NCBI GenBank assembly: GCA_964019135.1
Contig: OZ025256.1
Span: 23,939,911 to 24,003,910 of the forward strand
DNA: 64,000 nt
Source: Arenicola marina
Lineage: Eukaryota > Annelida > Polychaeta > Arenicolidae
Direction: 5' to 3'
Below the pieces are notes generated by a model. That model saw only the letters and a program-made list of their open reading frames with translations. It did not search any database and was not told the origin of the DNA. Position numbers and translations under genes: made by a program. Positions 1 to 64,000 of the stretch are shown here, piece after piece. Position 1 is the stretch's first letter. Each line of letters begins with the position of its first letter.

Positions 1-936
1 AGGGGTTGGGTCAGCTCGTAAGTTATGAGTCTGGGTTTCACCTCAGAGGAGAGGGGTTGGTTCAGCTCGTAAGTTATGAGTCTGGGTTTCACCTCAGAGG
101 AGAGGGTTTGGTTTAGCTCGTAAGTTATCAGTCTGGTTCTGACCCCGGAGGAGAGGGGTTGGTTCAGCTCGTAAGTTATCAGTCTGGGTCTCACCCCCTA
201 GGGGAGGGGTTGGGTCAGCTCGTAAGTTATGAGTCTGGGCTTCACCTCAGAGGAGAGGGGTTGGTTCAGCTCGTAAGTTATGAGTCTGGGTTTCACCTCA
301 GAGGAGAGGGTTTGGTTTAGCTCGTAAGTTATCAGTCTGGTTCTGACCCCGGAGGAGAGGGGTTGGTTCAGCTCGTAAGTTATCAGTCTGGGTCTCACCC
401 CCTAGGGGAGGGGTTGGGTCAGCTCGTAAGTTATCAGGCTGGGTCTCTCCCCGGAAGCGAGGGGTTGGTTCAGCGCGTAAGTTTTCAGTCTGGGTGTCAC
501 CTCGGAGGAGAAGGGTTGGTTCAGCGCGTAAGTTATGTGTCTGGGTCTCACCCCCAAGGAGAGGGGTTGGTTCAGCTCGTAAGTTATCAGTCTGGGTCTC
601 ACCCCGGAGGAGAGGGGTTGGTTCAGCTCGTAAGTTATCAGTCTGGGTCTCACCCCCTAGGAGAGGGGTTGGTTCAGCTCGTAAGTTATCAGTCTGGGTC
701 TCAGTCCCTAGGAGAGGGGTTGGTTCAGCTCGTAAGTTATCAGTCTGGGTCTCAGCCCCGAGGAGAGGGGTTGGTTCAGCTCGTAAGTTATCAGTCTGGG
801 TCTCACCCCTGAGGAGAGGGTTTGGTTCAGCTCGTAAGTTATCAGGCTGGGTCTCACCCCCAAGGAGAGGGGTTGGTTCAGCTCGTAAGTTATCAGTCTC
901 GGTGTCACCTCGGAGGAGAGGGGTTGGTTCAGCTTT
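1..936. repeat. 51-bp minisatellite, donor-spanning (~18 copies)
   Basis: Each unit contains GGTTGGTTCAGCTC followed by gtaagt. Units 1-204 are repeated at 205-408 (four-unit block). The array stops 50 bp before the exon A acceptor. Because the unit is 17 codons long it stays open in several frames, but it is intronic. The founding exon is upstream of the window. Confidence 0.9.
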
Positions 937-985
937 TTATATCTTTGGCGTCCTTTGGTGTCACATGTATGTACTTTGGTTGCAG

Positions 986-1146
986 GATCGCGTTTCCCTT
1001 CGAGAACAGTCAGATAGGACTCCACTACCTGATGTTTTTGCCAATGATCGAACGCCTAGGATCTGAGGAGCAGAAGAAATACTGGTTGCCCAAGGCGAAA
1101 AACCTGGCCGTCATAGGGACGTACGCTCAGACAGAGCTAGGTCACG
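986..1146 (+). CDS. ACOX1: ACOX exon A
   Basis: Acceptor ttgcag precedes 986; donor gtgagt follows 1146. It encodes [16 protein letters not shown]...[11 protein letters not shown] and ends in phase 1. The first base completes a codon begun in an exon outside the window (phase 2). The last ~36 nt are repeated in the following intron. Confidence 0.93.
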
Positions 1147-4100
1147 GTGAGTCAATAGTCAGTGATGTCATAGGGACGTACACACAGACAGAGGTAGGTC
1201 ACGGTGAGTCAATAGTCAGTGATGTCATAGGGACGTACACACAGACAGAGCTAGGTCACGGTGAGTCAATAGTCAGTGTTGTCATAGGGACGTACACACA
1301 GAACGAAATAGGTCACGGTGAGTCAATAGTCAGTGATGTCATAGGGACGTACGCTCAAACAGAGTCTATTAATCCATGAAATGAAGCATCGCATTAAAAA
1401 ATAATTGAACGAACTATTGTTCTGAAGCCAATGGACTTTTCTTGGTTCGTTATGTTTTTCAGGCACCCACTTGAGGGGGCTGGAGACCACTGCGACCTTT
1501 GACCCTCGCACCCAGGAGTTCGTCCTTCACTGCCCCACCATATCGGCCATGAAGTGGTGGCCGGGAGCCCGTGAGTGACACTAAAGCACGAACACACACC
1601 CATCAGTGTATAACGGCACTATAACACACACCCATCATCGTATAACGGCACTATAACACACACCCATCAGTGTATAACGGCACTATAACACACACCCATC
1701 AGTGTATAGCGGCACTATAACACACACCCATCAGTGTATAACGTAACTATAACACACACCCATCAGTGTATAGCGGCACTATAACACACACCCATCAGTG
1801 TATAACGGCACTATAACACACACCCATCAATGTATAACGGCACTATAACACACTCCCATCAGTGTATAACGGCACTATAACACACCCATCAGTGTATAAC
1901 GGCACTATATGTACCTATTCCTCATGCTCCTGTTTGAGAGGCAGGTCCAAAATACTTACTTTTTGGGACTAAGCCTTGTTGATATGATGGGGTACATGGG
2001 GCGCCTTCCGTGGTGCTATCCACCTTGTCCCGGGCTAAATGGCCAAGGTCGCGCCGACGGAAAACGAAAAGTGTCTGCTACAATTTGCAAGTTACGGTTA
2101 ATTGGTCAGGGGAGTCACCGGCAACAAATGTTCTGCGGAATTGTGGGAAGGAAAATGGTTTGCGGCGTATGAGGTCGTTCAATAGCGTTCTTGCGTCACC
2201 GTCATAAGCGTACGCGGTACGGAGTCGGCCCTGACGTCAAACCACTTCCTCCGCAGTGGGCAAGACGACCAACCACTGCATCGTGATGGCCCAGCTCTAC
2301 AGTCAGGGCAAACACCACGGCCTTCACCCCTTCGTCGTCCAGTTCCGTAGCCTTGACAACCATGAACCGTTGCCAGGTAAACCTATATCCAATAGAAAAC
2401 GTGCTTCCTTCTTCAACAGACAAAGTTAAGTTTACTCATGTAAATATAGAAGTCGTACATTAACTTCCTCATTAATCATTGTTGTAATAAACAATATGAC
2501 AGCGAAAATATATTTTATATTTTGCTGTATAACAGCCAAAATGTATTTCATATTTGAATATATTATAGCCAAATATGTATTTCATTTTTAAATATATGAT
2601 AGCCGAAACATATTAAGGCCTAAATATATTATAATCGAAATATACTATAGTCAAAAGATATTATAGACCAAGTATATAGTAGCCAGCATATACTTAAATG
2701 AACTTTAAAGACCGGAGTTCCTAGATATCACAAACGAAACCTGTCTTGATCTTCTATCTGGATAATGATGTATGTTTCAGTGTAATGACACAAGTCGAGC
2801 CGTGTCAGAAATAAATACATAAAACAGAGATAAAATGGTACTGTATCTCAGTGCGTCATTTTGTATCCCCCAAAAATGAGTGTACTTTTTATTCCAAAAA
2901 CTGAACACATTCATGGTCGTGTGTTGTCTCGCCTGTTTAATGCAATGAATGACGCCACCGGGCGGCGAACCAGAGTACTACTGTAGCGTCTCGTTCTCTC
3001 ACCGACAGGTGTCACTGTCGGCGACATCGGGCCCAAGTTTGGCTACGACGCCATGGATAACGGATTCCTTAAGTTCGACCACTTCCGGGTGCCGAGGGAC
3101 AGCATGTTGATGGGCAACGCCGAGGTAACACGGAGGATGGGGTGGGGGTGGGGGGGGGGGATGCCCAGGGACAGCATGTTGATGGGCAACGCCGAGGTAA
3201 CACGGAGGATGGGGTGGGGGGGGGGGGCGGGGAACTCGAGCCTGATATTGTGTTAATTTCCATTTATTTTCCTCGTCGGGAAGTAACGTTAGCGTTATCC
3301 ACTGTACAACGAACCAGGTGCTGGTTCCAACCCCGAACTTCTATCCGGGGCTGAGCATTTCGCCCTTTCGTCTCATTAGCTCAGGGGTCCCTGGACTGTT
3401 CCAGATACCACAGGCGACATCTATTGTCAAAAATATGCACTGCGTGTTACGGGTTAGAAAGCAGATTCTCGCATGCGAGAATGCCAATGGAGTTGGTTCA
3501 GGTGCCCGGCTTCAACGTTTCTTTTGTCAGGGGAAGGTTTGTTCTATGGCATTGTTATTCACAGAACAAACACACAAGATGTCTCCATAAACTTTTCTGC
3601 AAGTATTATATTATATAATGGAATCACAGCTTATATTTCAACAGATTAAAAACAGTTTAACAGTCTTATGTGTTCGGCTCCCCGTTCGACATTCCTGGTT
3701 GCTACGCAACAAGGCTACTTCAGTGCACTCGGATTCGTATTGAAAAGACAGTGTATACCAATCCATATAACCGCTTTATAACAAGTTATAATCGATACAC
3801 ATCTGGAACCCAATTATGTATTCTGTACATCATATATCCCTGAATCAGATTTGTACAAAATAGACGCCAGAACGCGCAGCGTTGTGACGGTCATTACGTT
3901 GGCCGTTGGCATTTATATCAGCTGTTTTCTGTGCTTTTATGCCTCCATATCGTTCTTAAAATGGTATTAATGGATAGTCAAGATATTTATCTGTACAAAG
4001 TGTTGTTGTTTTTGTGTTTTTTTAACTGATAAACTGTTTTCAGACAGCACAGAGCGAGCCAGAGCTACCCGAAACACGCGCCTGCCAGAATTTCCCCTGG

Positions 4101-7100
4101 AACGGTCTAGTATTATTTTTCCAGTGCTTGTGCTTGTGCATTCTCTGGGTGAGATAACAACGGTGTTTGTTGCAGGTTCTCCCAGATGGAAAATTCCGCA
4201 AGCAACCATCGCAGCTCAAGCGACCGGCCTACGCGGCCATGACCTTGGTGCGAGTCAGCCTCATAGAGAATATGGGATACAAAGCTCTCTCCTCGGCCGC
4301 CACCATCGCCGTCCGCTACAGCGCCGTGCGCCGCCAGTCCGAGATCAAACCGGGGTGAGTGGCTCGTATCCCATCCATCCCGTACCCAGGGTCTCTCCGT
4401 GCGCCGCCAGTCCGAGATCAAACCGGGGTGAGTGGCTCGTAACACATCCATCTCGTACCCAGGGTCTCGCCGTGGGCCGCCGGTCCGAGATCAAACCGGG
4501 GTGAGTGGCTCTTAACACATCCATCTCGTACCCAGGGTCTCTCCGTGCGCCGCCAGTCCGAGATCAAACCGGGGTGAGTGGCTCTGAGTGGCTCGTAACA
4601 CATCCATCTCGTACCCAGGGTCTCGCCAGGCGCCGCCAGTCCGAGATCAAAGCGGGGTGAGTGGCTCGTATCACATCCATCTCGTACCCAGGGTCTCTCC
4701 GTGCGCCGCCAGTCCGAGATCAAACCGGGGTAAGTGGCTCGGAACACATCCATCTCGTACCCAGGGTCTCGCCAGGCGCCGCCAGTCCGAGATCAAACCG
4801 GGGTGAGTGGCTCGTAACACATCCATCTCGTACCCAGGGTCTCGCCGTGCGCCGCCAGTCCGAGATCAAACCGGGGTAAGTGGCTCGGAACACATCCATC
4901 TCGTACCCAGGGTCTCTCCGTGCGCCGCCAGCCCGAGATCAAACCGGGGTAAGTGGCTCGGAACACATCCATCTCGTACCCAGGGTCTCGCCGTGGGCCG
5001 CCAGTCCGAGATCAAACCGGGGTGAGTGGCTCGTAACACATCCATCTCGTACCCAGGGTCTCGCCAGGCGCCGCCAGTCCGAGATCAAACCGGGGTGAGT
5101 GGCTCGTATCACATCCATCTCGTACCCAGGGTCTCTCCGTGCGCCGCCAGTCCGATATCAAACCGGGGTGAGTGGCTCGGAACACATCCATCTCGTACCC
5201 AGGGTCTCGCCAGGCGCCGCCAGTCCGAGATCAAACCGGGGTGAGTGGCTCGTAACACATCCATCTCGTACCCAGGGTCTCGCCGTGCGCCGCCAGTCCG
5301 AGATCAAACCGGGGTAAGTGGCTCGGAACACATCCATCTCGTACCCAGGGTCTCGCCAGGCGCCGCCAGTCCGAGATCAAACCGGGGTGAGTGGCTCGTA
5401 TCACATCCATCTCGTACCCAGGGTCTCTCCGTGCGCCGCCAGTCCGAGATCAAACCGGGGTAAGTGGCTCGGAACACATCCATCTCGTACCCAGGGTCTC
5501 ACCAGGCGCCGCCAGTCCGAGATCAAACCGGGGTAAGTGGTTCGGAACACATCCATCTCGTACCCAGGGTCTCGCCAGGCGCCGCCAGTCCGAGATCAAA
5601 CCGGGGTGAGTGGCTCGTAACACATCCATCTCGTACCCTGGCGCTCCCCACTGTCGATATGTAAGATCTGTTGATATCTTTCAGGTCTCCCGAGCCGCAG
5701 GTCCTGGACTTCCAGACTCAGCAGGACAAGGTGCTGCCCCACGTGGCCATGGCCTACGCCATGAAGTTCAGCGCCAGAAAGGTCGTGGAATTCTACGAGG
5801 AGACGCAGCGAGAGATAGCGAGGGGAATCATGAGTGGTGTGCCCGAGGTACGTCATGGGGGTGTGCGTCATGGGAGATATGCGTCATGGTATGTGTACGT
5901 CATCGGAAGGTGTAGGTCATGTTACGTGTGCGTCAACATCTGTGTGCGTCATGTTAGGTGTGTGCCAAAGGAGGCCATTGGGGCGGTAATATGTAATAAA
6001 AGGTTGCCTCGTGGGAAGCATGTCAAGGGAGGTTGCAACATGAGTGTACGTCATGAGAGTGTACGTCATGTGAGTGTGCGTCATGTGAGTGTACGCCATG
6101 TGAGTGCACGTCATATGAGATGTTCTTCATGGGGGTCTACGTCATGCGGGTGTACGTCATGAGAGGTGTATGACATGAGAGTGCACGTCATGGACAGCAG
6201 GTTTCATGATAGGTGTTTCGTGAATACGTCGACCGACTGAAGTCCTACGCCTGCTGTGTGACTCACTGCTGTAGTCTCCTGTATTTTAGCTGCACGGCCT
6301 GTCGACCGGGCTGAAGTCCTACGCCTGCTATGTGACTCATTGCTGTAGTCTCCTGTATTTTAGCTGCACGCCATGTCGTCCGGGCTGAAGTCCTACGCCT
6401 GCTATGTGACTCACTGCTGTAGTCTCCTGTATTCTAGCTGCACGCCTTGTCGGCCGGGCTGAAGTCATACGCCTGCTATGTGACTCACTGCTGTAGTCTC
6501 CTGTATTTTAGCTGCTTGTCCTGTCGGCCGGACTGAAGTCCTACGCCTGCTATGTGACTCACTGCTGTAGTCTCCTGTATTTTAGCTGCTCGTCCTGTGT
6601 GCCGGACTGAAGTCCTACGCCTGCTATGTGACTCACTGCTGTAGTCTCCTGTATTTTAGCTGCACGGCCTGTCGGCCGGACTGAAGTCCTACGCCTGCTA
6701 TGTGACTCACTGCTGTAGTCTCCTGTATTTTAGCTGCACGCCATGTCGTCCGGGCTGAAGTCCTACGCCTGTTATGTGACTCACTGCTGTAGTCTCCTGT
6801 ATTCTAGCTGCACGCCCTGTCGGCCGGGCTGAAGTCCTACGCCTGCTATGTGACTCACTGCTGTAGTCTCCTGTATTTTAGCTGCTTGTCCTGTCGGCCG
6901 GACTGAAGTCCTACGCCTGCTATGTGACTCACTGCTGTAGTCTCCTGTATTTTAGCTGCTCGTCCTGTGTGCCGGACTGAAGTCCTACGCCTGTTATGTG
7001 ACTCACTGCTGTAGTCTCCTGTATTCTAGCTGCACGCCTTGTCGGCCGGGCTGAAGTCATACGCCTGCTATGTGACTCACTGCTGTAGTCTCCTGTATTT

Positions 7101-15325: not shown

Positions 15326-15655
15326 TGGCACGTGACCTCGTACGGCCACGTCATTTGTGACAGTTTTCACCAGTAATCGAAGCGGGGAAACTGAATATGT
15401 TTAAAGATATATGCGTTATTGTGTGTCGTTATGAATACAAATTATACACACACACATTCCAACTATTACGTGAACGGTATAGATACTGAAATGTATGCAT
15501 TGTTGTGCAGATACAACTTTTTATTAAATTGTAACCAAGCTTAGATGTAAAAGCTTAGAACTATTTGTTATCCTTCGCGCAGGGATTCATTTATTGCAAT
15601 GTCGAAAAACTGTCCCAAATTATGTGTGAATCGCTCTTAAACGGATAGGTTATTT

Positions 15656-15696
15656 AATAAACTTTCGTATATTTGATAGATTTCATGTTTAATAAA
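15656..15696 (+). terminator. ACOX polyadenylation signals
   Basis: AATAAA hexamers at 15656-15661 and 15691-15696, 330-370 nt past the stop codon, imply a 3' UTR of about 350-400 nt. The exact cleavage site is not visible. Confidence 0.55.
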
Positions 15697-15717
15697 AGTT
15701 AGAAAAAGGTTATTTAA

Positions 15718-16117
15718 AGTTGCATGCGGAGCTCTTTCCCGCCAAAACTAGAGAGGTCAAAATACAAATAAGTATCGGTCCTTGAATCATTCAAGATTGG
15801 TTTTGTCTATACTCCACCCATGCCAGACTGCCAAATTGTGTCTCTTAGCCTTGCCCGTGATATCAGTTTACCACAAATTTTCATTTCAGTGGTAAACGTC
15901 ATCAGTTTGAGTGCTTCGCGATGCTTTGTTATAAGTAGCAGTGCCGCGACAGAGTGCTGTGGTGTCGCGGGATAGACACGTTTGCCACACCACAGCCAAA
16001 ACGGTGAGCTTTATCAGGTTTATGAATTTATGGAATGGAACAATCGAGTTTTCTGCAAATTTTGATATAAATTTCGCCTGGGGTTAGTTTTGGCGGGAAA
16101 GAACTCGACATGCAACT
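15718..16117. mobile_element. piggyBac-like MITE with TTAA target sites
   Basis: Inverted termini AGTTGCATG and CATGCAACT are flanked by TTAA at 15714-15717 and 16118-16121. Pairing extends inward (ctttcccgccaaaacta against tagttttggcgggaaag). 400 bp, no transposase. Confidence 0.7.
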
Positions 16118-17132: not shown

Positions 17133-17167
<35 letters not shown>

Positions 17168-18534: not shown

Positions 18535-18536
18535 CC

Positions 18537-18796: not shown

Positions 18797-18934
18797 TAGA
18801 ACTGTTCTTTGAAATTTTATCCACATGAACGTGCCATTTCAGATGTTATAATGAATAGTGATGCCAAGAAAATTGAATTCATCCACACATTCTAGCACCA
18901 CATTATCAATTTTAAGGGTAGGAGGCACAATCTG

Positions 18935-19110
18935 CAGGGGCGGATCTAGGGGGGTAGGGGGGGGGGGGGGGTAGGAGTCTTGTTATCCGAGCACCCCCGA
19001 TTGCAAGTTTTCAAAGAGCACCCCCCCGGTAGCAAGGTTTTAAGAGAGCACCCCCACGCTCGCAAGTTTTCAAACCCTCCTCCCTTTGCAAATTCCTAGA
19101 TCCGCCCCTG
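18935..19110. mobile_element. hAT-like MITE
   Basis: Perfect 16-bp inverted termini CAGGGGCGGATCTAGG / CCTAGATCCGCCCCTG, a hAT-type end. ATCTG lies immediately outside each end as a possible target duplication. 176 bp, with a G-run after the left terminus. Confidence 0.75.
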
Positions 19111-21006: not shown

Positions 21007-21126
21007 GAAGAGAGATCTTACTGAGGCAACAAGGAGCGATGCGAGTAACGTCGAAATAACTTTATCAGTTTATGCAATTATCACCAAAAATACGCTGTTT
21101 CTTGTCATCCTGGGAATGCGAACAAC

Positions 21127-21188
21127 ATGAGCTCGCTCCACTTTTTGGTTCATCCCCTACCAGGAACAGACGACCAGTTGAATGATAG
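21127..21188 (+). CDS. UBR5: UBR5 exon 1 (start codon)
   Basis: ATG at 21127 encodes [20 protein letters not shown], ending in phase 2 before gtaaat. The match to the UBR5 N-terminus identifies this short isolated exon 3.8 kb before exon 2. Confidence 0.92.
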
Positions 21189-57100: not shown

Positions 57101-60100
57101 TTCCGCGGGCGGCGGGAGTGTGGGGGGTGTGGGGGGAGTGGGGGTCGCCGAGGGGAGTCTCCTCTCCATGTCTGCCACGAAACAGGAAGACAAGGACCGC
57201 CGCCAGAGCGCGCTGGCCATCCTCAAGCTGCTCTGTGACAACCCCAGGCTACAGGGCCAGCTCCTGTCACTGCTGACGGCCAGGTAGGTCTGTCTGAGGC
57301 TGCTCTGTGACAACCCCAGGCTACAGGGCCAGCTCCTGTCACTGCTGACGGCCAGGTAGGTCTGTCTGAGGCTGCTCTGTGACAACCCCAGGCTACAGGG
57401 CCAGCTCCTGTCACTGCTGACGGCCAGGTAGGTCTGTCTGAGACTGCTCTGTGACAACCCCAGGCTACAGGGCCAGCTCCTGTCACTGCTGACGGCCAGG
57501 TAGGTCTGTCTGAGACTGCTCTGTGACAACCCCAGGCTACAGGGCCAGCTCCTGTCACTGCTGACGGCCAGGTAGGTCTGTCTGAGGCTGCTCTGTGACA
57601 ACCCCAGGCTACAGGGCCAGCTCCTGTCACTGCTGACGGCCAGGTAGGTCTGTCTGAGGCTGCTCTGTGACAACCCCAGGCTACAGGGCCAGCTCCTGTC
57701 ACTGCTGACGGCCAGGTAGGTCTGTCTGAGGCTGCTCTGTGACAACCCCAGGCTACAGGGCCAGCCTCTGTCACTGCTGACGGCCAGGTAGGTCTGTCTG
57801 AGGCTGCTCTGTGACAACCACAGGCTGCAGGGCCAGCTCCTGTCACTGCTGACGGCCAGGTAGGTCTGTCTGAGGCTGCTCTGTGACAACCCCAGGCTAC
57901 AGGGCCAGCTCATGTCACTGCTGACGGCCAGGTAATTTTGTCTGAGGCTGCTCTGTGACAACCCCAGGCTACAGGGCCAGCTCCTGTCACTGCTGACGGC
58001 CAGGTAGGTCTGTCAGAGGCTGCTCTGTGACAACCCCAGGTTACAGGGCCAGCTCCTGTCACTGCTGACGGCCAGGTAGGTCTGTCTGAGGCTGCTCTGT
58101 GACAACCCCAGGCTACAGGGCCAGCTCCTGTCACTGCTGACGGCCAGGTAGGTCTGTCTGAGGCTGCTCTGTGACAACCCCAGGCTACAGGGCCAGCTCC
58201 TGTCACTGCTGACGGCCAGGTACGTCTGTCTGAGGCTGCTCTGTGACAACCCCAGGCTACAGGGCCAGCTCCTGTCACTGCTGACGGCCAGGTAGGTATG
58301 TCTGAGGCTGCTCTGTGACAACCCCAGGCTACAGGGCCAGCTCCTGTCACGGCTGACGGCCAGGTAGGTCTGTCTGAGGCTGCTCTGTGACAACCCCAGG
58401 CTACAGGGCCAGCTCCTGTCACTGCTGACGGCCAGGTAGGTCTGTCTGAGACTGCTCTGTGACAACCCCAGGCTACAGGGCTAGCTCCTGTCACGGCTGA
58501 CGGCCAGGTAGGTCTGTCAGAGGCTGCTCTGTGACAACCCCAGGCTACAGGACCAGCTCATGTCACTGCTGACGGCCAGGTAGGTCTGTCAGGGGCTGCT
58601 CTGTGACAACCCCAGGCTACAGGGCCAGCTCATGTCACTGCTGACGGCCAGGTAGGTCTGTCTGAGGCTGCTCTGTGACAACCCCAGGCTACAGGGCCAG
58701 CTCATGTCACTGCTGACGGCCAGGTAGGTCTGTCTGAGGCTGCTCTGTGACAACCCTAGGCTACAGGGCCAGCTCTTGTCACTGCTGACGGCCAGGTAGG
58801 TCTGTCTGAGGCTGCTCTGTGACAACCCCAGGCTACAGGGCCAGCTCCTGTCACTGCTGACGGCCAGGTAGGTCTGTCAGAGGCTGCTCTGTGACAACCC
58901 CAGGCTACAGGGCCAGCTCATGTCACTGCTGACGGCCAGGTAGGTCTGTCTGAGGCTGCTCTGTGACAACCCCAGGCTACAGGGCCAGCTCCTGTCACTG
59001 CTGACGGCCAGGTAGGTCTGTCTGAGGCTGCTCTGTGACAACCCCAGGCTACAGGGCCAGCTCCTGTCACTGCTGACGGCCAGTTAGGTCTGTCTGAGGC
59101 TGCTCTGTGACAACCCCAGGCTACAGGGCCAGCTCATGTCACTGCTGACGGCCAGGTAGTTATGTCTGAGGCTGCTCTGTGACAACCCCAGGCTACAGGG
59201 CCAGCTCCTGTCACTGCTGACGGCCAGGTAGGTCTGTCTGAGGCTGCTCTGTGACAACCCCAGGCTACAGGGCCAGCTCCTGTCACTGCTGACGGCCAGG
59301 TAGGTCTGTCTGAGGCTGCTCTGTGACAACCCCAGGCTACAGGGCCAGCTCCTGTCACTGCTGACGGCCAGGTAGGTCTGTCAGAGGCTGCTATGTGACA
59401 ACCCCAGGCTACAGGGCCAGCTCCTGTCACTGCTGACGGCCAGGTAGGTCTGTCTGAGGCTGCTCTGTGACAACCCCAGGCTACAGGGCCAGCTCCTGTC
59501 ACTGCTGACGGCCAGGTAGGTCTGTCTGAGACTGCTCTGTGACAACCCCAGGCTACAGGGCCAGCTCCTGTCACTGCTGACGGCCAGGTAGACTGGAGAA
59601 AGCACAAGGCGTAGAACTCCCTTATATGATGATCCGTGAACGTAAATAATCTTGAAGGCTTTGTTCTACAGTAGGTTGCTATCACAATATGCCCCACGTC
59701 GGTGTGGCTTAGCCTATTGTAGGTTGCTATCACAATATGCCCCACGTCGGTGTGGCTTAGCCTACTGTACGTTGCTATCACAATATGCCCCACGTCGGTG
59801 TGGCTTAGCCTACTGTAGGTTGCTATCACAATATGCCCCCCGTCGGTGTGGCTTAGCCTACAGTAGGTTGCTATCACAATATGCCCCACGTCGGTGTGGC
59901 TTAGCCTGCAGTAGGTGGCTATCACAATATGCCCCACGTCGGTGTGGCTTAGCCTGCAGTAGGTTGCTATCACAATATGCCCCACGTCGGTGTGGCTTAG
60001 CCTGCAGTAGGTGGCTATCACAATATGCCCCACGTCGGTGTAGCTTAGCCTACTGTACGTTGCTATCACAATATGCCCCACGTCGGTGTGGCTTAGCCTA

Positions 60101-63100
60101 CTGTACGTTGCTATCACAATATGCCCCACGTCGGTGTGGCTTAGCCTACTGTAGGTTGCTATCACAATATGCCCCACGTCGGTGTAGCTTAGCCTACTGT
60201 ACGTTGCTATCACAATATGTCCCACGTCGGTGTGGCTTAGCCTACTGTACGTTGCTATCACAATATGCCCCACGTCGGTGTGGCTTAGCCTACTGTACGT
60301 TGCTATCACAATATGTCCCACGTCGGTGTGGCTTAGCCTACTGTACGTTGCTATCACAATATGCCCCACGTCGGTGTGGCTTAGCCTATTGTAGGTTGCT
60401 ATCACAATATGCCCCACGTCGGTGTGGCTTAGCCTACTGTACGTTGCTATCACAATATGCCCCACGTCGGTGTGGCTTAGCCTACTGTACGTTGCTATCA
60501 CAATATGCCCCACGTCGGTGTGGCTTAGCCTACTGTACGTTGCTATCACAATATGCCCCACGTCGGTGTGGCTTAGCCTACTGTACGTTGCTATCACAAT
60601 ATGCCCCACGTCGGTGTGGCTTAGGATCCGATCACTTCCTAGTATTTCGTGAGCCACCTGAGAGCCTAACGGCACGTGGGTCGGTGGTTCGATCCCCGCT
60701 GTGGCCATGTCTGTGTGGTCGCAGGATAAAGATCCCATGTCCTTCTTTGCAAAGAGTAGGGGGTTACCCCCGGGGACATGGCTCCACTCTCCCTTCTTTC
60801 CCCCATTGACGCGATATGACCAAAGTGGTTAAAGTGTACTGAACATACAACCAACCGACCAACCTTGTATTTCGTGGTCTCTGACCTCTAATATATGATA
60901 ATGTTTAACGTGAAACACAAATACTGAATCCGGTCGTGTCCCCCCCTCCCCCCCACCCCGCCCTCTGACCTATATACTGATGTCGAATGGGTTTCTCACA
61001 CAGAAACGCCGAGGGTTGCACACCCTTCATGCAGTCTGTGTGCGCACGCACCTACCCCGTCGCTCTCTTCCTGCTGGACACCGCCAAGCGCGTTGCCATG
61101 GGCGACAGGCAGGAAGTGGACAAGGAGGCGTTGATGTCGATGTTGTACCCGCCGGGTTCGAACCTCGACAACTCTCCGCTCCACGTCCTGTGCTGTAACG
61201 ACTCCTGTAGCTTCACCTGGACTGGCGACGAACACATCAACCAGGTAACGATGACAACACACGGCCTTTTATCCACCGGAATTGACAGGCGTTTCTCGGG
61301 TCATATTTATACAGAAAGAAGAAGCTTTGTAGGCTGTTATCACTAGGACCTGGCTTTGTAGGCTGTTATCACTAGGACCTGGCTCTGTAGGCTGCTATCA
61401 CTAGGACCTGGGTCTGTAGGCTGCTATCACTAGGACCTGGCTCTGTAGGCTGTTATCACTAGGACCTGGGTCTGTAGGCTGTTATCACTAGGAACTGGGT
61501 CTGTAGGCTGCTATCACTAGGACCTGGGTCTGTAGGCTGCTATCACTAGGACCTGGCTCTGTAGGCTGCTATCACAGTGCCCTGGTTCTGTAGGCTGCTA
61601 TCACAATGCCCTGATTCTGTAGGCTGCTATCACAGTGCCCTGGTTCTGTAGGCTGCTATCACAATGCCCTGATTCTGTAGGCTGCTATCACAATGCCCTG
61701 GTTTAAAGGCTGCTATCACTAGGACCTGGTTCCGTAGGCTGCTATCACAATGCCCTGATTCTGTAGGTTGCTATCACAGTGCCCTGGTTCTGTAGGCTGC
61801 TATCACAATGCCCTGATTCTGTAGGCTGCTATCACAATGCCCTGGTTTAAAGGCTGCTATCACTAGGACCTGGTTCTGTAGGCTGCTATCACAATGTCCT
61901 GGTTCTGTAGGCTGCTATCACAATGCCCTGGTTCTGTAGGCTGCTATCACAATGCCCGGGTTCTTTAGGCTGCTATCACTATGCCCTGGTTCTGTAGGCT
62001 GCTATCACAATGCCCTGGTTCTGTAGGCTGCTATCACAATGTCCTGGTTCTGTAGGCTGCTATCACAATGCCCTGGTTCTGTAGGCTGCTATCACAATGC
62101 CCGGGTTCTTTAGGCTGCTATCACTATGCCCTGGTTCTGTAGGCTGCTATCACAATGCCCTGGTTCTGTAGGTTTCTATCACAATGCCCTGATTCTCTAG
62201 GCTGCTATCACAATGCCCTGGTTCTGTAGGCTGCTATCACAATGCCCTGATTCTGTAGGCTGCTATCACAATGCCCTGATTTTGTAGGCTGCTATCACAA
62301 TGACCTGGTTCTGTAGGCTGCTATTACAATGCCCTGGTTCTGTAGGTTGCTATCACAATGACCTGGTTCTGTAGGCTGCTATCACTAGGACCTGGTTCTT
62401 TAGGCTGCTATCACAATGCCCTGGTTTTGTAGGCTGCTATCACAATGCCCTGGTTCTGTAGGCTGCCATCACAATGCCCTGGTTCTGTAGGTTGCTATTA
62501 CAATGCCCTGGTTCTGTAGGCTGCTATCACAATGCCCTGGTTCTGTAGGCTGCTATCACAATGCCCTGGTTCTGTAGGCTGCTATCACAATCAGTAGGCT
62601 GCTATCACAATGCCCTGGTTTTGTAGGCTGCCATCACAATGCCCGGGTTCTGTAGGCTGCTATCACAATGCCCGGGTTCTGTAGGCTGCTATCACTAGGA
62701 CCTGGTTCTGTAGGCTGCTATCACAATGCCCTGTTTCTCCTCAGGACATCTTCGAGTGTCGGACGTGTGGTCTGGTGGGGACGCTGTGCTGCTGTACGGA
62801 GTGCGCCAAGGTCTGCCACAAGGGACACGACTGCAAGTAAGTGAGACGCACAGACAGACAGACGGCTACAGCCGTGGTTACTGTCATATAATCCTTCCAC
62901 TCACTGATCAACATGTTGTAAGCCTCACGGCAAGTGGATCTGCTAGATATTGGTTGTGCATGCATTGTATAGTGACTACCCGGTTGGAGTGTGCACGTGC
63001 GCTGTCGTTTCCATGACTACACACATGCGCGCTGGTGACCCATGTGTTGACTGCCCGTCTCCATGCGTTCGCTGACTGTAGCCATGGTTACCCTGTTTTT

Positions 63101-63862
63101 ACTTCCTGTCTCCATAGTTACCCTGTGTTGACTGTGTCTCCATGCCTACCCTGTGTTGACTTCCTGTTTTCATAGTTACCGAGTTGACTTCCGGTATCCA
63201 TGGTTACCCTGTGTTGACTGCCTGTCTCCATGGTTACCCTGTGTTGACTGCCTGTCCATGATTGCCCTGTGTTGACTTCCTGTCTTCATGCCTACCCTGT
63301 GTTGACTGCCTGTCTCCATGGTTACCCTGTGTTGACTGCCTGTCTCCATGGTTACCCTGTGTTGACTTCCTTTCTCTATAGTTAACCTGTGTTGACTTCC
63401 GATTTCCATGGTTACCCTGTGTTGAATGCCTGTCTCCATGGTTACCCTGTGTTGACTTCCTTTCTCTATAGTTAACCTGTGTCGACTTCCGATTTCCATG
63501 GTTACCCTTTGTTGACTGCCTGTCCATGATTGCCCTGTGTTGATTTCCTGTCTCCAAAGTTACCCTCTGTTGACTGTGTCTCCATGCCTACCCTGTGTTG
63601 ACTTCCTATGTCCATAGTTACCCTGTGTTGACTTCCAGTCTCCATGGTTACCCTGTGTTGACTGCCTGTCTCCATGGTTACCCTGTGTTGACTGCCTGTT
63701 GCCTGCCGTTACCAGGTTGAAGCGGACGTCGCCTACCGCCTACTGTGACTGCTGGGAGAAGTGCAAGTGTCGCTCACTGATCGCCGGAAACCAGAACTCT
63801 CGCTTCGACCTCCTCAACAAGCTCCTGACCGAGACCGACCTCGTCACGCTGCCCAATTCAAG
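21127..63862 (+). CDS. UBR5: E3 ubiquitin-protein ligase UBR5 (HYD/EDD), first 25 coding exons
   Basis: UBR5 is a large, mainly nuclear HECT-type E3 ligase that recognises N-degrons through its UBR box. Twenty-five exons encode about 1,359 residues in an order collinear with vertebrate UBR5. The start is [20 protein letters not shown], essentially the vertebrate N-terminus, which fixes the ATG (A at -3). The UBA domain is at residues ~194-240 (exons 5-7). A WD/RCC1-propeller-like region covers roughly 350-900, and a Gly-rich linker lies in exon 21. The UBR zinc box is at ~1262-1329, with all the Cys/His of CCNDSC, CRTCG, CCCTEC, CHKGHDC and CDCWEKCKC intact. MLLE and HECT domains are past the window. 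One base is missing in exon 9. At least eight introns carry junction-spanning minisatellites. Confidence 0.96.
21189..21959. other. 5' part of UBR5 intron 1
   Basis: Unique AT-rich sequence plus a C-run near 21297-21309. No gene recognised. Confidence 0.5.
21960..22775. mobile_element. Foldback element with tandem 138-bp arm repeats
   Basis: Left end ggtccgtctaattaccgaag and right end cttaggtaattagacgtacc are inverted. Between them, ccgaagggggct-type sequence on the left faces several inverted copies (agcccccttcggtaaat) on the right. The right arm contains three tandem 138-bp units (aaatgaatgatttgccat at ~22314, 22452 and 22590). No transposase. Confidence 0.65.
22776..25012. other. 3' part of UBR5 intron 1
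   Basis: Holds two similar ~60-bp segments (ttgctactgatgggaagtt at ~22852 and 22904) and a perfect 18-bp hairpin at 24098-24138. Near 24480-24560 there is a sequence (cttatacaccagaaattacgg) like the end of a common animal MITE, without a clear partner. No coding exon found. Confidence 0.45.
24098..24138. repeat. Perfect 18-bp inverted repeat, 5-nt loop
   Basis: tgttgcattagtatggaa, loop cccac, then the exact complement. Function unknown. Confidence 0.8.
25013..25136 (+). CDS. UBR5: UBR5 exon 2
   Basis: Begins after ctttccag and ends at gtaagt, phase 0. Encodes [12 protein letters not shown]...[15 protein letters not shown], matching LREVSEKL...GPNHAAFLLE of vertebrates. Confidence 0.93.
25137..25560. 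other. UBR5 intron 2
   Basis: Unique AT-rich sequence with no array. Confidence 0.5.
25561..25634 (+). CDS. UBR5: UBR5 exon 3
   Basis: Begins after tgtttgcag; donor gtaagt at 25635. Encodes [18 protein letters not shown]..., matching DGRVCRIGFSVQPDRLEL. Phase 2 end. Confidence 0.93.
25985..27115. repeat. 73-bp minisatellite in UBR5 intron 3 (~15.5 copies)
   Basis: Unit gatccc(c/a)cagtctgtcta...gcacccgccattgctccgcc...aatgtggcct. The array runs right up to the exon 4 acceptor, whose upstream bases (gatcccacagtctgtctacc) are unit sequence. Intronic open frames on the minus strand are by-products. Confidence 0.93.
27123..27239 (+). CDS. UBR5: UBR5 exon 4
   Basis: Begins after tacccgcag and ends at gtcagt, phase 2. 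Encodes [20 protein letters not shown]...VDPTAG, a poorly conserved linker, placed by phase and position. Confidence 0.85.
27262..27590. repeat. 16-bp minisatellite in UBR5 intron 4 (~20 copies)
   Basis: Unit ggtgacctgtgttcac and variants fill most of the intron between exons 4 and 5. No exon sequence is included. Confidence 0.92.
27611..27836 (+). CDS. UBR5: UBR5 exon 5 (start of UBA)
   Basis: Begins after cctttcag and ends at gtcagt, phase 0. Encodes an Ala/Asn-rich linker, [15 protein letters not shown] and HVPEELISQ, the first UBA residues. Confidence 0.93.
27837..28315. repeat. ~30-bp minisatellite starting at exon 5 donor (~15 copies)
   Basis: Units of gtgtgaaggggcggggcttatgtctgatga begin with the donor itself (gtcagtgtgaagg). 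Some units contain ccagtaagtg, a donor-like word. Unit lengths vary. Confidence 0.88.
28538..28597 (+). CDS. UBR5: UBR5 exon 6 (UBA)
   Basis: Begins after ctttgcag and ends at gtgagt: 20 codons, [20 protein letters not shown], nearly identical to vertebrate UBA sequence. Confidence 0.95.
28806..28899 (+). CDS. UBR5: UBR5 exon 7 (UBA end, acidic)
   Basis: Begins after ttctaatag. Encodes [20 protein letters not shown] then an Asp-rich run ending PYMS, phase 1. The last ~15 nt (CCCCTACATGTCAG) seed the downstream array. Confidence 0.95.
28885..31930. repeat. ~30-43-bp minisatellite spanning exon 7 donor (~70 copies)
   Basis: Unit: cccctacatgtcag (exon end), gtcagtgtcaggatcc (donor side), then taaaacacaaacaa. 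Exon-identical ends sit before GT in most units. A 417-bp block recurs (e.g. 30583 and 31000). The last ~200 bp is diverged. Confidence 0.95.
31931..32300. other. Unique segment between two arrays of UBR5 intron 7
   Basis: Includes a 14-base G-run near 32078 and AT-rich unique sequence. No gene. Confidence 0.5.
32305..34590. repeat. 43-bp minisatellite before exon 8 (~53 copies)
   Basis: Unit gtgttatgacgcggtgttgg + actgttgtgacgctgtgtgtgat, very homogeneous, with occasional 41-bp units. A ten-unit block (428 bp) recurs near 33772 and 34200. It ends ~20 bp before the exon 8 acceptor and contains no exon sequence. Confidence 0.95.
34609..34743 (+). CDS. UBR5: UBR5 exon 8
   Basis: Begins after tgtttgcag. 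Encodes [20 protein letters not shown] and [18 protein letters not shown]; matches [20 protein letters not shown]. Phase 1 end at gtgagg. Confidence 0.95.
34719..35670. repeat. G-rich minisatellite spanning exon 8 donor (gap inside)
   Basis: Unit: the last ~25 nt of exon 8 (GGGCGGGCCAACCGGTCCAG + GGCAG), gtgag, and a G-run of variable length. About 20 units are visible on the two sides of the 200-N gap. Copy number is uncertain. Confidence 0.93.
35131..35330. other. Assembly gap (200 N)
   Basis: Exactly 200 N inside a G-rich tandem array, presumably a nominal gap length rather than a measured one. Confidence 0.99.
35841..36045 (+). CDS. UBR5: UBR5 exon 9 (frame broken by one missing base)
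   Basis: Begins after ctgtgtcag. The 5' half reads [20 protein letters not shown] in the frame set by exon 8. The 3' half reads [15 protein letters not shown] only in the next frame, which is the one exon 10 needs. Both halves are conserved in UBR5. One extra base around the CCC run at 35975-35977 would reconcile them. Likely a sequencing or assembly error, or a null allele. Confidence 0.88.
36083..36345 (+). mobile_element. tRNA-derived SINE
   Basis: Pol III A box tagctcagtgg (36091) and B-box-like ggttccagccc (36162), followed by gtctgtgtggtcgcaggata and a tail ending near caaccactg. Two nearly collinear relatives are at 60640-60860 and, partly, 13515. In UBR5 intron 9. Confidence 0.75.
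36559..36681 (+). CDS. UBR5: UBR5 exon 10
   Basis: Begins after gtttacag and ends at gtaggc, 41 codons. Encodes [20 protein letters not shown] and [14 protein letters not shown], matching the GALYSELLAV...LYQWKW propeller segment. Confidence 0.94.
36730..36920. repeat. ~30-bp minisatellite in UBR5 intron 10 (~5-6 copies)
   Basis: Units of ggttgctatgtaagtgcgcg + tgttattgg, containing gtaagt but no exon sequence. Confidence 0.85.
36936..37046 (+). CDS. UBR5: UBR5 exon 11
   Basis: Begins after ctcgccag and ends at gtacgt, 37 codons. Encodes [20 protein letters not shown] then [12 protein letters not shown]; aligned to LHHPRATFLGLTNEKIVLLS. Confidence 0.92.
37069..38812. repeat. 24-bp C/T-rich minisatellite in UBR5 intron 11 (~72 copies)
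   Basis: Unit ctcaccccgcctcgcccgtctcca, strongly strand-asymmetric (C+T on the transcript). Being eight codons long it keeps long frames open in both directions. No exon sequence is included. Confidence 0.95.
38842..38955. repeat. Three-copy 34-38-bp repeat spanning exon 12 acceptor
   Basis: gtcgcgcag|GTGTCTA at 38867, a copy with the AG changed (gtcgcgatggtgtcta) at 38901, then the real acceptor with exon start at 38948. A small acceptor-type array. Confidence 0.75.
38948..39105 (+). CDS. UBR5: UBR5 exon 12
   Basis: Begins after gtcgcgcag; donor gtaagt at 39106, phase 2. Encodes [18 protein letters not shown]...[18 protein letters not shown], matching ATWVDETLSSVASKLEH...YTCAQLENSLYWW. Confidence 0.95.
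39061..39375. repeat. 64-bp minisatellite spanning exon 12 donor (5 donors)
   Basis: About 45 exon nt (TACACCTGCGCCCGCCTCGA...) plus gtaagtagcgttgaatgc. GT donors at 39106, 39170, 39234, 39298 and 39363. Confidence 0.95.
39388..41997. repeat. 39-bp minisatellite spanning exon 13 acceptor (~67 copies)
   Basis: Unit GGGGATCATGCC (exon start), taacagagttg, then tttatctctctcacag. It holds a branch-point-like ctaac, a pyrimidine tract and AG. Some units are 37 bp (one tc pair fewer), including the one next to exon 13. A 737-bp block is duplicated (e.g. cacgggggga at 40361 and 41098). Confidence 0.97.
41986..42288 (+). CDS. UBR5: UBR5 exon 13
   Basis: The last acceptor of the array (41985) joins TG|G in frame to exon 12: [20 protein letters not shown], ...[20 protein letters not shown] and [20 protein letters not shown]. 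Matches WGVVPFSQRKKMLEKAR of vertebrates. Phase 2 end at gtgagt. Confidence 0.95.
42338..42478. repeat. ~40-bp minisatellite before exon 14 (~3.5 copies)
   Basis: Unit aactgttgtgttgtgattgc + tgcaccccgctgaccggtg. The final partial unit merges into the exon 14 acceptor (ttgttgacag). Confidence 0.88.
42479..42615 (+). CDS. UBR5: UBR5 exon 14
   Basis: Begins after gttgacag and ends at gtaagt, phase 1. Encodes [20 protein letters not shown] then [17 protein letters not shown], matching PPPSPASTCSD. Confidence 0.92.
42745..43712. repeat. ~35-37-bp minisatellite in UBR5 intron 14 (~26 copies)
   Basis: Unit cacccctggctgccgtaccc-like + cggggcacctctccct. More divergent after ~43240, with C-runs. No exon sequence is included. 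Confidence 0.9.
43739..43860 (+). CDS. UBR5: UBR5 exon 15
   Basis: Begins after acctccag. Encodes [20 protein letters not shown] and [20 protein letters not shown] plus K, matching VVFVEDVKNVPVGKVLK. Phase 0 end at gtgggt. Confidence 0.94.
43849..44035. repeat. 21-28-bp minisatellite spanning exon 15 donor (~7 copies)
   Basis: Exon end GTGTTAAAG plus gtgggtcagtgc is repeated. Later copies expand to ~28 bp (acaggccccgtgtataaggt). Confidence 0.88.
44109..44454 (+). CDS. UBR5: UBR5 exon 16
   Basis: Begins after gttccag. Encodes [20 protein letters not shown], a Gly/Ala/Ser-rich insert with nine consecutive Ala (GCC run), then [16 protein letters not shown] and [12 protein letters not shown]. 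The flanks match vertebrate UBR5; the insert is lineage-specific. Phase 1 end. Confidence 0.94.
44688..45890. repeat. 41-bp minisatellite inside UBR5 intron 16 (~29 copies)
   Basis: Unit gtgagctccctaagagtgtc + aactg(t/g)caaggactacttgac, highly homogeneous with two main variants (gtcaagg, ggcaagg). It lies more than 200 bp from both exon borders. Confidence 0.96.
46152..46306 (+). CDS. UBR5: UBR5 exon 17
   Basis: Begins after tcggcag and ends at gtcagt, phase 0. Encodes [40 protein letters not shown] and [11 protein letters not shown]. Confidence 0.94.
46312..46695. repeat. 46-bp minisatellite in UBR5 intron 17 (~8 copies)
   Basis: Unit ccccggggctacggtgtcaa + ggggaccgctagcactctcg + cccgct, starting just after the exon 17 donor. 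No exon sequence. Confidence 0.92.
46790..46990. repeat. 14-bp repeat in UBR5 intron 17 (~14 copies)
   Basis: Unit ttgaccctggatca and variants, ending ~20 bp before exon 18. Confidence 0.9.
47012..47203 (+). CDS. UBR5: UBR5 exon 18
   Basis: Begins after tgttgcag and ends at gtgagt, 64 codons. Encodes [34 protein letters not shown] and [11 protein letters not shown], matching PIILRDGNGTIYPMAKDC. Confidence 0.95.
47144..47412. repeat. Exon 18 end plus donor duplicated (2 full, 1 partial copy)
   Basis: CTGCCCCACGTGGGTCCCGG through ATGGCGCTAGAG and gtgagt recurs 129 bp downstream (47273). A third, internally deleted copy starts at 47390 and lacks the donor. Confidence 0.93.
47413..48122. other. 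Unique part of UBR5 intron 18
   Basis: AT-rich unique sequence. I see no exon or recognisable element. Confidence 0.45.
48123..48487 (+). mobile_element. Retroposed insert with poly(A) and 11-bp target duplication
   Basis: Direct repeats aatgacttgga at 48123-48133 and 48477-48487 flank a ~343-bp insert ending in AATAAA (~48449), gcatttcgttt and a poly(A) run, the signature of LINE-mediated retroposition. It contains an open frame of up to 89 codons (48124-48393), rich in Lys/Arg, whose ATG lies in the target duplication. The insert is therefore probably the 5'-truncated 3' end of some mRNA or retroelement. Parent not recognised. Confidence 0.75.
48552..48633 (+). CDS. UBR5: UBR5 exon 19
   Basis: Begins after ccctcgcag and ends at gtgggt, phase 1. 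Encodes [20 protein letters not shown] then SSLEHEE, matching QTLMQHILRCDYEACRQYLMNLE. Confidence 0.93.
48780..49025 (-). mobile_element. LINE (non-LTR retrotransposon) C-terminal fragment
   Basis: Minus-strand translation contains [20 protein letters not shown] and then [20 protein letters not shown]. This resembles the EDEYHFLF-CPLY-DIR motif typical of the C-terminus of non-LTR retrotransposon polyproteins. Short decayed piece in UBR5 intron 19. Confidence 0.55.
49245..49295 (+). mobile_element. SINE tail fragment
   Basis: ccagaattggttaaagcgtc + ctgaatatacaa resembles the 3' segment of the SINE copies at 13574 and 60815. It lies just before exon 20. Confidence 0.45.
49306..49431 (+). CDS. 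UBR5: UBR5 exon 20
   Basis: Begins after tgtttcag. Encodes [40 protein letters not shown] and PP, phase 1. Matches [22 protein letters not shown]. Confidence 0.94.
49421..55013. repeat. 38/34-bp minisatellite spanning exon 20 donor (~150 copies)
   Basis: Unit: CGAACCCCCAG (exon end), gtaacatgccacctcc, optional ctcc, then gtcatca. The 4-bp ctcc difference gives two unit classes. Minor classes have cccgg|gtaac or accacc. The largest array in the window. Confidence 0.97.
55105..56232. repeat. 28-bp minisatellite before exon 21 (~40 copies)
   Basis: Unit catataacgtgtcgttcctt + acattgat, almost invariant. It ends ~80 bp before exon 21; no exon sequence. Confidence 0.97.
56314..56709 (+). CDS. 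UBR5: UBR5 exon 21 (Gly-rich linker)
   Basis: Begins after gtcattcag; donor gtgggt at 56710. A Gly-rich stretch of ~35 residues encoded by GGC/GGG repeats precedes [35 protein letters not shown] and [20 protein letters not shown] and W-PDPP match vertebrate UBR5. Phase 1 at both ends. Confidence 0.93.
56710..57033. other. UBR5 intron 21
   Basis: Unique sequence. cccagttggtaagcggactg near 56838 vaguely resembles a tRNA A-box region, but no cloverleaf or B box is apparent. Confidence 0.4.
57034..57283 (+). CDS. UBR5: UBR5 exon 22
   Basis: Begins after ggttacag; donor gtaggt at 57284, phase 2. Encodes [20 protein letters not shown], a Gly/Val-rich run, [20 protein letters not shown] and [12 protein letters not shown]; matches ILKLLCD...LLSAK. 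Confidence 0.94.
57227..59587. repeat. 72-bp minisatellite spanning exon 22 donor (33 copies)
   Basis: 57 exon nt (GCTGCTCTGTGACAACCCCA... GCCAG) plus ~15 intron nt (gtaggtctgtctgag). First donor 57284, last 59588: exactly 32 x 72 bp, so copies differ by substitutions only. A TAG lies in each donor (gtaggt). Confidence 0.97.
59673..60625. repeat. 48-bp minisatellite in UBR5 intron 22 (~20 copies)
   Basis: Unit gttgctatcacaatatgccc + cacgtcggtgtggcttagcc + tactgtac. Sixteen codons long, hence long open frames on both strands. No exon sequence. Confidence 0.95.
60640..60865 (+). mobile_element. tRNA-derived SINE, 5'-truncated
   Basis: B box ggttcgatccc at 60686, then gtctgtgtggtcgcaggata, gttacccccggggacatggc and ccattgacgcgatatgacca, ending in acaaccaaccgaccaacc. 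Same family as 36083-36345; the A-box half is missing, replaced by the array. Confidence 0.75.
61004..61244 (+). CDS. UBR5: UBR5 exon 23 (start of UBR box)
   Basis: Begins after cacacag and ends at gtaacg, phase 0. Encodes [20 protein letters not shown] then [20 protein letters not shown] and GDEHINQ, the first zinc-ligand Cys of the UBR box. Confidence 0.95.
61325..62735. repeat. ~29-bp minisatellite before exon 24 (~48 copies)
   Basis: Unit aggctgctatcacaatgccc + tggttctgt, with variants ctaggacctgg. It runs to 10 bp before the real acceptor (gtttctcctcag). Each unit ends ttctgtag, itself a weak acceptor-like word. Confidence 0.93.
62745..62836 (+). CDS. UBR5: UBR5 exon 24 (UBR box)
   Basis: Begins after ctcctcag; donor gtaagt, phase 2. 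Encodes [20 protein letters not shown] then [10 protein letters not shown], the dense Cys/His core of the UBR zinc fold. Confidence 0.96.
63010..63712. repeat. ~30-bp minisatellite before exon 25 (~22 copies)
   Basis: Unit tgactgcctgtctccatggt + taccctgtgt. The repeating gttacc...gttgac resembles the real junction gttaccag|GTTGAAG, so this may be a degenerate acceptor-spanning array. Confidence 0.88.
63716..63862 (+). CDS. UBR5: UBR5 exon 25 (UBR box end)
   Basis: Begins after cgttaccag. Encodes [40 protein letters not shown] and DLVTLPNSR, nearly identical to vertebrates. Donor gtcaaa at 63863, phase 2. Later exons are outside the window. Confidence 0.93.
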
Positions 63863-64000
63863 GTCAAACCACTTCTTTCTTACCTATATCTGCCAAAGAG
63901 AAGGTCAAGTCCCTTCTTTGTTAACTATATCTTCAAAATTCAAAGTCAAAACCTTTCTTTGTTGGTTATTTCTGCCAAATTGAAGGTCAAAACCTTCCTT
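63850..64000. repeat. ~42-bp minisatellite spanning exon 25 donor (3.5 copies, continues)
   Basis: CCAATTCAAG|gtcaaaccacttc is followed by gccaaagagaaggtcaagtc, aaattcaaagtcaaaacc and gccaaattgaaggtcaaaac. Donor-type array cut by the window end. Confidence 0.8.

What the first reader, a model, noticed from the sequence alone, without database searches (positions are those of the whole stretch)
1..64000. Minisatellites whose repeat units span exon-intron junctions, recurrent across two unrelated genes
Seen: in at least 13 introns of ACOX and UBR5 the repeat unit starts inside an exon and crosses its splice site. Donor type (exon end + GT): 1-936, 1111, 3096, 4326, 14439, 28885, 34719, 39061, 43849, 47144, 49421, 57227 and 63850. 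Acceptor type (AG + exon start): 6222, 38842 and 39388. Chance tandem repeats would not keep landing on splice junctions. Inference: a mechanism tied to splice-site sequence (slippage, recombination or template switching at exon ends, or selection tolerating only copies that keep a working splice site) generates them. I recall junction-overlapping minisatellites reported in amphioxus; how general that is should be verified. The scale here, with hundreds of spare splice sites in two genes, looks exceptional.
Basis: partly seen in the sequence, partly recalled or inferred. Interest (0 to 1): 0.92.

Follow-up and report, generated by a model that had tools for sequence, protein, structure and literature searches.

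The report
Splice-site-spanning minisatellites in an annelid
In two genes of what appears to be an annelid worm, short DNA stretches covering the border between an exon and an intron have been copied in tandem up to about 150 times, leaving hundreds of intact-looking spare splice sites beside the real ones; such repeats are already described in amphioxus and chicken, so the kind is known and the host group is what looks new.

Summary
Exon models from ACOX1 and UBR5 homology keep the frame through every mapped junction; one frame break lies inside UBR5 exon U9. The organism is an annelid, not amphioxus. The phenomenon is known: 'mirages' (amphioxus), 'exon stuttering' (chicken).

That chance cannot do this is only partly supported. 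Against present intron lengths the count is never reached by chance. With each array reduced to one founder unit (median intron 284 nt), random placement gives 11.3 spanning arrays against 14 seen (P=0.17); with downstream UBR5 added, 17.6 against 23 (P=0.053). A donor excess remains (17 against 8.8, P=0.0027).

Spare splice sites evolve like the rest of the unit; 389 of 399 tested would break the reading frame or add a stop if used. Best reading: a minisatellite-rich genome where duplications across exon edges survive because the exon keeps its nearest splice site, then expand. A donor-directed generator is not excluded. RNA data are needed.

The parts
1..934 (+). Donor-type array, unit 51 nt; continues upstream of the window to the end of ACOX exon A1
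1110..1364 (+). Donor-type array at ACOX exon A2 (last exon base 1146), unit 57 nt, 4.5 copies
3090..3233 (+). Donor-type duplication at ACOX exon A5 (3124), unit 72 nt, 2 copies
4322..5638 (+). Donor-type array at ACOX exon A6 (4354), unit 73 nt, 18 copies
6237..9356 (+). Acceptor-type array at ACOX exon A8 (first exon base 9314), unit 74 nt, 42 copies, AG intact in 42 of 42
14439..15200 (+). Donor-type array at ACOX exon A12 (14472), unit 40 nt, 19 copies; the inverted paralog carries 38 copies of the same unit
28885..31711 (+). Donor-type array at UBR5 exon U7 (28899), unit 44 nt, about 66 copies (TRF start 28895; the copied exon end begins about 28885)
34717..35676 (+). Donor-type array at UBR5 exon U8 (34743), unit 37 nt, interrupted by a 200-N gap at 35131-35330
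38851..38954 (+). Acceptor-type array at UBR5 exon U12 (38948), unit 34 nt, 3 copies
39060..39379 (+). Donor-type array at UBR5 exon U12 (39105), unit 64 nt, 5 copies; abuts the next array
39380..41997 (+). Acceptor-type array at UBR5 exon U13 (41986), unit 39 nt, 68 copies; with the previous array it makes up the whole intron
43852..44030 (+). Donor-type array at UBR5 exon U15 (43860), unit 21 nt (30 nt in its distal part)
47143..47379 (+). Donor-type duplication at UBR5 exon U18 (47203), unit 129 nt, 1.8 copies
49420..55011 (+). Donor-type array at UBR5 exon U20 (49431), unit 38 nt, about 153 copies, GT intact in 152 of 154 aligned sites
57227..59591 (+). Donor-type array at UBR5 exon U22 (57283), unit 72 nt, 33 copies
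63849..63994 (+). Donor-type array at UBR5 exon U25 (63862), unit 41 nt, about 4 copies; junction confirmed with the next exon at 65628
986..15325 (+). ACOX1-like gene, exons A2-A13 (A9 not found), one open frame ending ARL-stop
21127..63862 (+). UBR5 gene, exons U1-U25; continues to about 120.8 kb in window coordinates

Best explanation
The window lies in an annelid genome that forms and expands minisatellites widely. Small tandem duplications (about 20-130 bp) arise in and around its genes. Those wholly inside an exon are removed unless they keep the frame. Those that straddle an exon edge survive, because the exon is still defined by its own nearest pair of splice sites: the first donor copy, or the last acceptor copy, is used, and the other copies fall into the intron. 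The array then grows by ordinary minisatellite turnover (unequal exchange, conversion or slippage) and fills the intron, its spare splice sites being neutral passengers. Shown: anatomy, frame conservation, neutral conservation of the spare GT/AG, a junction place in the unit compatible with uniform, a spanning count near random founder placement, the same arrays in a paralog with other copy numbers. Inferred: that the exon-nearest site is used in the mRNA (exon definition), and the DNA process of duplication.
For: Joined exons stay in frame only with first-donor and last-acceptor use. Founder-unit null: 14 seen against 11.3 expected in the window and 23 against 17.6 with downstream UBR5. Introns homologous to those of the window gene in the C14 ACOX paralog are array-free in 6 of 7 mapped cases, 241-2159 nt long, so the collapsed lengths are realistic. 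Spare GT/AG neither purged nor kept: 9 arrays, mean percentile 0.55, P=0.31. Junction place in unit: 15 arrays, KS P=0.30. The two exon-internal arrays of the window, and a third inside the UBR5 reading frame downstream, have unit lengths that are multiples of 3. Ten 5-kb genome stretches chosen by position have 0-100% array coverage, mean about 34%. The inverted ACOX paralog shares the A12 and A8 arrays with other copy numbers.
Against: Donors are hit about twice as often as placement predicts (17 against 8.8, P=0.0027) and acceptors are not (6 against 8.8), which a passive model does not predict. One of four variants of the window test gives a total excess (units of 30 nt or more, P=0.017). 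None of 15 junctions lies in the outer tenth of its unit at either end, where 3 would be expected; TRF may miss such arrays. No RNA was available. P values treat arrays as independent and rest on TRF's choice of unit.
Confidence: 0.6

Rival explanations
1. A generator tied to exon 3' ends: instability linked to transcription, splicing or the G-rich flank of 5' splice sites makes tandem duplications preferentially at donors.
For: Donor excess 17 against 8.8, P=0.0027; donors against acceptors 17:6, one-sided binomial P=0.017. Donor excess holds in all five versions of the window test (P 0.002-0.046). The diverged C14 ACOX paralog has an array with a different unit (51 against 40 nt) at the homologous last donor.
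Against: In the downstream set alone P=0.07 for donors, and its new sites are 5 donors to 3 acceptors. Most arrays (38 of 61) do not span a junction. No preferred place of the junction in the unit. GC is higher on the intron side of donors than of acceptors (0.56 against 0.49), which alone may bias GC-rich duplications.
Confidence: 0.22
2. The spare splice sites are functional and selected, giving variable or regulated splicing.
For: Hundreds of consensus-like copies persist; in arrays A2, A5, U15, U18 decoy use could be in frame and stop-free in at least one case each.
Against: 389 of 399 spare sites would shift the frame or bring a stop if used. Spare GT/AG are no better conserved than other dinucleotides. 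Units that are multiples of 3: 7 of 16, near the third expected.
Confidence: 0.06
3. Assembly artefact: the arrays, or their extents, are made by misassembly.
For: A 200-N gap lies inside the U8 array, exon U9 has a frame break, and three junction units carry long G runs.
Against: Copies are diverged from each other; the same arrays occur in a separate paralog, similar ones at more UBR5 junctions and in the C14 paralog. Two-copy cases (A5, U18) are the least secure.
Confidence: 0.05
4. Relics of intron birth: tandem duplication of exon sequence created the introns (the AGGT model).
For: The U12-U13 intron is nothing but two junction arrays. The model is in print (PMC4974935, passages) and PMC3087553 proposes mirages as a route to new introns (passages).
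Against: The C14 paralog has introns without arrays at homologous ACOX places, so in ACOX the introns do not depend on the arrays. UBR5 intron positions were not compared with other animals.
Confidence: 0.05

Closest known systems
'Mirages' of amphioxus (Adh3, TnC, globins, PGBD5; PMC3087553 and PMC3902484, passages seen)
   Same: Minisatellite-like tandem repeats whose unit spans an exon-intron boundary, donor or acceptor type, with copied splice signals.
   Different: Another phylum (annelid); many more copies (up to about 153 against the 3-7 reported for globin and PGBD5 repeats); 13 donor and 3 acceptor sites in 64 kb. Normal splicing and length instability are reported there and not tested here.
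'Exon stuttering' / 'sequence stuttering' of chicken dot chromosomes (PMC12954441; section 7 part 1 and section 9 read, passages)
   Same: Introns filled with local tandem repeats, a part of them copying the edge of the neighbouring exon with its donor or acceptor; GC-rich genes.
   Different: In chicken mostly on dot microchromosomes (190 of 236 introns); here on a 43-Mb contig of a genome where random stretches are also array-rich. Length variation within the species is shown there and not testable here. No link of GC3 to array coverage within this window.
Intron gain by tandem duplication (Rogers model; PMC4974935, passages)
   Same: Tandem duplication that copies splice signals.
   Different: There a new intron is born; here the ACOX introns exist in a paralog without arrays.
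Earthworm metallothionein intronic minisatellites (PMC12783039, passages)
   Same: Minisatellite clusters in introns of an annelid gene.
   Different: No splice-junction-spanning unit is described in the passages seen.

Membership tests
Mirages (junction-spanning minisatellites, amphioxus) | Repeat unit spans an exon-intron boundary and copies the splice signal | tested here: met
   15 mapped junctions in the window and A1
Mirages (junction-spanning minisatellites, amphioxus) | Gene still codes for a normal protein when the exon-nearest site is used | tested here: met
   ACOX and UBR5 frames open through every mapped junction; one break inside exon U9, not at a junction
Mirages (junction-spanning minisatellites, amphioxus) | Regular splicing observed in mRNA | not testable with these tools
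   No RNA data for this species
Mirages (junction-spanning minisatellites, amphioxus) | Length instability between alleles or somatic | not testable with these tools
   One assembly only; copy number differs between paralogs (A12 array 19 against 38 copies)
Sequence/exon stuttering (chicken) | Introns filled with local tandem repeats | tested here: met
   68% of the mapped intron length in the window
Sequence/exon stuttering (chicken) | Exon-edge fragments copied into the neighbouring intron | tested here: met
Sequence/exon stuttering (chicken) | Extensive length variation within the species | not testable with these tools
   No second haplotype or reads
Sequence/exon stuttering (chicken) | Association with GC-rich coding sequence | tested here: inconclusive
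   GC3 is 0.81-0.82 in both genes, but intron array coverage does not follow flanking GC3 (34 introns, rho 0.10, P=0.57)
Intron gain by tandem duplication | The intron is absent where the duplication is absent | tested here: not met
   ACOX only: C14 paralog keeps homologous introns, 6 of 7 mapped ones array-free; not tested for UBR5

The most novel reading that the evidence does not exclude
In this annelid, tandem duplication is actively directed to exon 3' ends by something linked to transcription or splicing, so that donor-type arrays arise about twice as often as random placement predicts; the resulting fields of up to about 150 near-identical splice sites would be a natural test of how the spliceosome picks the exon-nearest site.
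Probability: 0.22. Interest if true: 0.8.

Novelty: new member of a known kind. Interest (0 to 1): 0.55.

Why it matters
If it holds genome-wide, junction-spanning minisatellites have arisen in at least three distant animal lineages (amphioxus, birds, annelids) and look like a general outcome of minisatellite-rich genomes rather than a curiosity of one lineage. The arrays are a natural experiment on splice-site choice: dozens to about 150 near-identical donors or acceptors in a row, where the exon-nearest one must win for a working mRNA. The founder-unit null used here also corrects a tempting inference: that hits on junctions prove a splice-linked generator. Copied exon ends will also trouble automatic gene prediction.

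Tried and rejected
Amphioxus as the source: rejected, since the ACOX search (best 120 of 4437 listed) shows no close relative, Branchiostoma at 48-50% like other animals, and UBR5 falls with annelids. Selection for or against spare splice sites: not seen. Preference for frame-neutral units: 7 of 16, not above a third by much (plus the 51-nt A1 unit). GC3 predicting array coverage: rho 0.10, P=0.57. G4 motifs: 3 of 14 spanning against 2 of 23 other arrays. Rfam: no match at gathering threshold in the window. A shuffle of full-length arrays in present introns gives 15.3 spanning arrays against 14 seen; I prefer the founder-unit null because a grown array does not move its edge into an exon. My first idea that arrays are confined to introns was wrong: the 5.8-kb intergenic stretch of the window is nearly free of them, but ten genome stretches average about 34%. 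A paper search on 'mirsat', a misremembered word, found nothing relevant among the 20 listed of 573. The primary Adh paper (10.1093/nar/gkf386) is not held and is known here only through citing papers. A search of annotated text for other lineages gave no further case in the listings, apart from the chicken paper found through.

Rows dropped before counts: TRF rows with score under 100 or period under 10 were left out of the base test (lower-scoring rows were added back in one variant); overlapping rows were merged; the weak intergenic row 18994-19074 was left out of the coverage figures. Arrays A1 and U25 are not in the 37-array window test because their introns run out of the window; U25 is counted in the downstream set. 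Of 21 downstream junction pairs tried, 15 were used, one of them with a small score margin of 2.5; a probable fourth downstream acceptor array at 92452 was not counted. Some downstream units (94, 98, 129, 136, 269, 271 nt) may be multiples of a smaller unit, which raises the expected count.

Full report
What was checked. To see whether they cross splice sites I built gene models. Homology places the 3' part of an ACOX1-like gene at about 1-15.3 kb and the 5' and middle part of UBR5 from 21.1 kb to the end of the window, both on the + strand; UBR5 matches human UBR5 in the PDB at E=2.3e-282. Splice sites were set by GT/AG context and tested by reading through. ACOX gives one open frame to a stop; UBR5 gives 25 exons and 1365 codons with a single frame break, inside exon U9. 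One ACOX exon (A9) was not found.

Result. Of 70 mapped junctions 15 are crossed by an array, 12 donors and 3 acceptors. The sixteenth site, at the start of the window, is donor type: exon A1 lies just upstream and its end is copied in the array. U25, whose next exon is outside, was confirmed from downstream sequence. The U12-U13 intron consists of a donor array abutting an acceptor array.

Is it more than chance? It depends on the null. If a unit is dropped at random into today's introns, 2.6 spanning units are expected and 14 are seen, with a maximum of 10 in 100,000 simulations (37 arrays, 34 introns). But today's introns are long because of the arrays. With each array reduced to one founder unit the median intron falls from 965 to 284 nt and 11.3 spanning units are expected (P=0.17). 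The C14 ACOX paralog, nearly free of arrays, has introns of 241-2159 nt at homologous places, so the collapsed lengths are realistic. Three of four variants agree; with units of 30 nt or more only, the total is in excess (P=0.017). Combined: 23 against 17.6 in 61 arrays of 49 introns, P=0.053. Donors are in excess (17 against 8.8, P=0.0027), acceptors are not (6 against 8.8); donors to acceptors 17:6 has a one-sided binomial P of 0.017. In the downstream set alone the donor excess is weaker (P=0.07), and its new sites are 5 donors to 3 acceptors.

What the copies do. The junction's place within the unit is compatible with uniform (15 arrays, KS P=0.30), though none lies in the outer tenth at either end where 3 would be expected. 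Spare GT and AG are conserved like other dinucleotides (9 arrays, mean percentile 0.55, P=0.31). Of 399 strictly matched spare sites 10 would give an in-frame, stop-free insertion if used, and 389 would not. The two arrays inside exons of the window, and one inside the UBR5 reading frame downstream, have units that are multiples of three, as expected if selection removes the others.

How it most likely works. Tandem arrays are common in this genome: ten 5-kb stretches chosen by position have 0-100% coverage, mean about 34%. A duplication across an exon edge leaves one complete exon whose nearest splice site is still the right one. Under exon definition (established knowledge, not tested here) the exon-nearest donor or acceptor is paired across the exon, and the other copies become intron. 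Copy number then drifts: the inverted ACOX paralog, about 22-28 kb upstream of the window, carries the same A12 and A8 arrays, with 38 against 19 copies of the A12 unit and 46 against 42 acceptor cores in the A8 array. These arrays either predate that duplication or were shared by conversion. The donor excess may reflect a real generator at exon ends, or the higher GC on the intron side of donors (0.56 against 0.49 at acceptors).

Organism. The ACOX search gives about 43-57% identity for the 120 listed hits, Branchiostoma at 48-50%. UBR5 groups with a leech (Helobdella) and an unnamed transcript at 100/99 support in trees of 14 and 17 sequences, apart from Branchiostoma, molluscs, a brachiopod and, in the second tree, a nemertean, and shares with those two alone the segment RGIRIA-[DE]-[SN]-PLILIRGED (3 of 17 rows). 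Owenia, also an annelid, does not join this group. I call the source an annelid; the species is unknown. The genome has 867 Mb in 762 contigs and the window lies on a 43-Mb contig.

What is known. Junction-spanning minisatellites are named mirages in amphioxus (PMC3087553 and PMC3902484; passages). A 2026 paper describes the same anatomy in chicken as exon stuttering, 236 introns in 115 genes, and mentions gerbils (PMC12954441; section 7 part 1 and section 9 read; passages). For annelids, searches for annelid + minisatellite + intron (2 papers) and polychaete + tandem repeats + introns + splice sites (0 papers), and one for the stuttering terms (2 papers, amphioxus and chicken), showed no report of it in the listings; that library lacks most subscription papers. 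The earthworm metallothionein paper (PMC12783039, passages) describes intronic minisatellites, with no junction-spanning unit in the passages seen; the other paper was seen in the listing only.

Verdict. The kind is known; the annelid case appears to be new. The strong inference, that chance cannot explain hits on junctions, is not borne out by the founder-unit test; a moderate donor bias remains and deserves a genome-wide test with RNA.

Noticed in passing
35131-35330: A run of 200 N inside the U8 donor array, as at a scaffold join.
   Followed up: partly
35841-36045: UBR5 exon U9 changes reading frame within the exon: an assembly error, a variant or a missed intron.
   Followed up: partly
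L010-L011 (about 22-28 kb upstream of the window): An inverted ACOX paralog with a 97.6%-identical A12 exon, sharing the A12 and A8 arrays; its A8-type exon has diverged from the exon part that its own array still carries.
   Followed up: partly
L039 (C14:19634301-19641800): A diverged ACOX paralog, nearly free of arrays, has a donor-type array at the homologous last mapped donor with a different unit (51 against 40 nt), possibly an independent origin at the same junction.
   Followed up: partly
39060-41997: The whole U12-U13 intron is a donor array directly abutting an acceptor array; reduced to one unit each it would be 45 nt long.
   Followed up: partly
44214-44246 and 56329-56427: Repeats inside coding exons U16 and U21 with units that are multiples of three, coding for Ala- and Gly-rich stretches.
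   Followed up: partly
about 36020-36230 and 60670-60750: Two places give similar translated matches and look like copies of one interspersed element.
   Followed up: no
15323-15325: The ACOX frame ends in ARL before the stop, which resembles a peroxisomal targeting signal (recalled, not tested).
   Followed up: no
L033 (C5:14000001-14005000): A stretch chosen by position alone is wholly one 38-nt tandem array.
   Followed up: no
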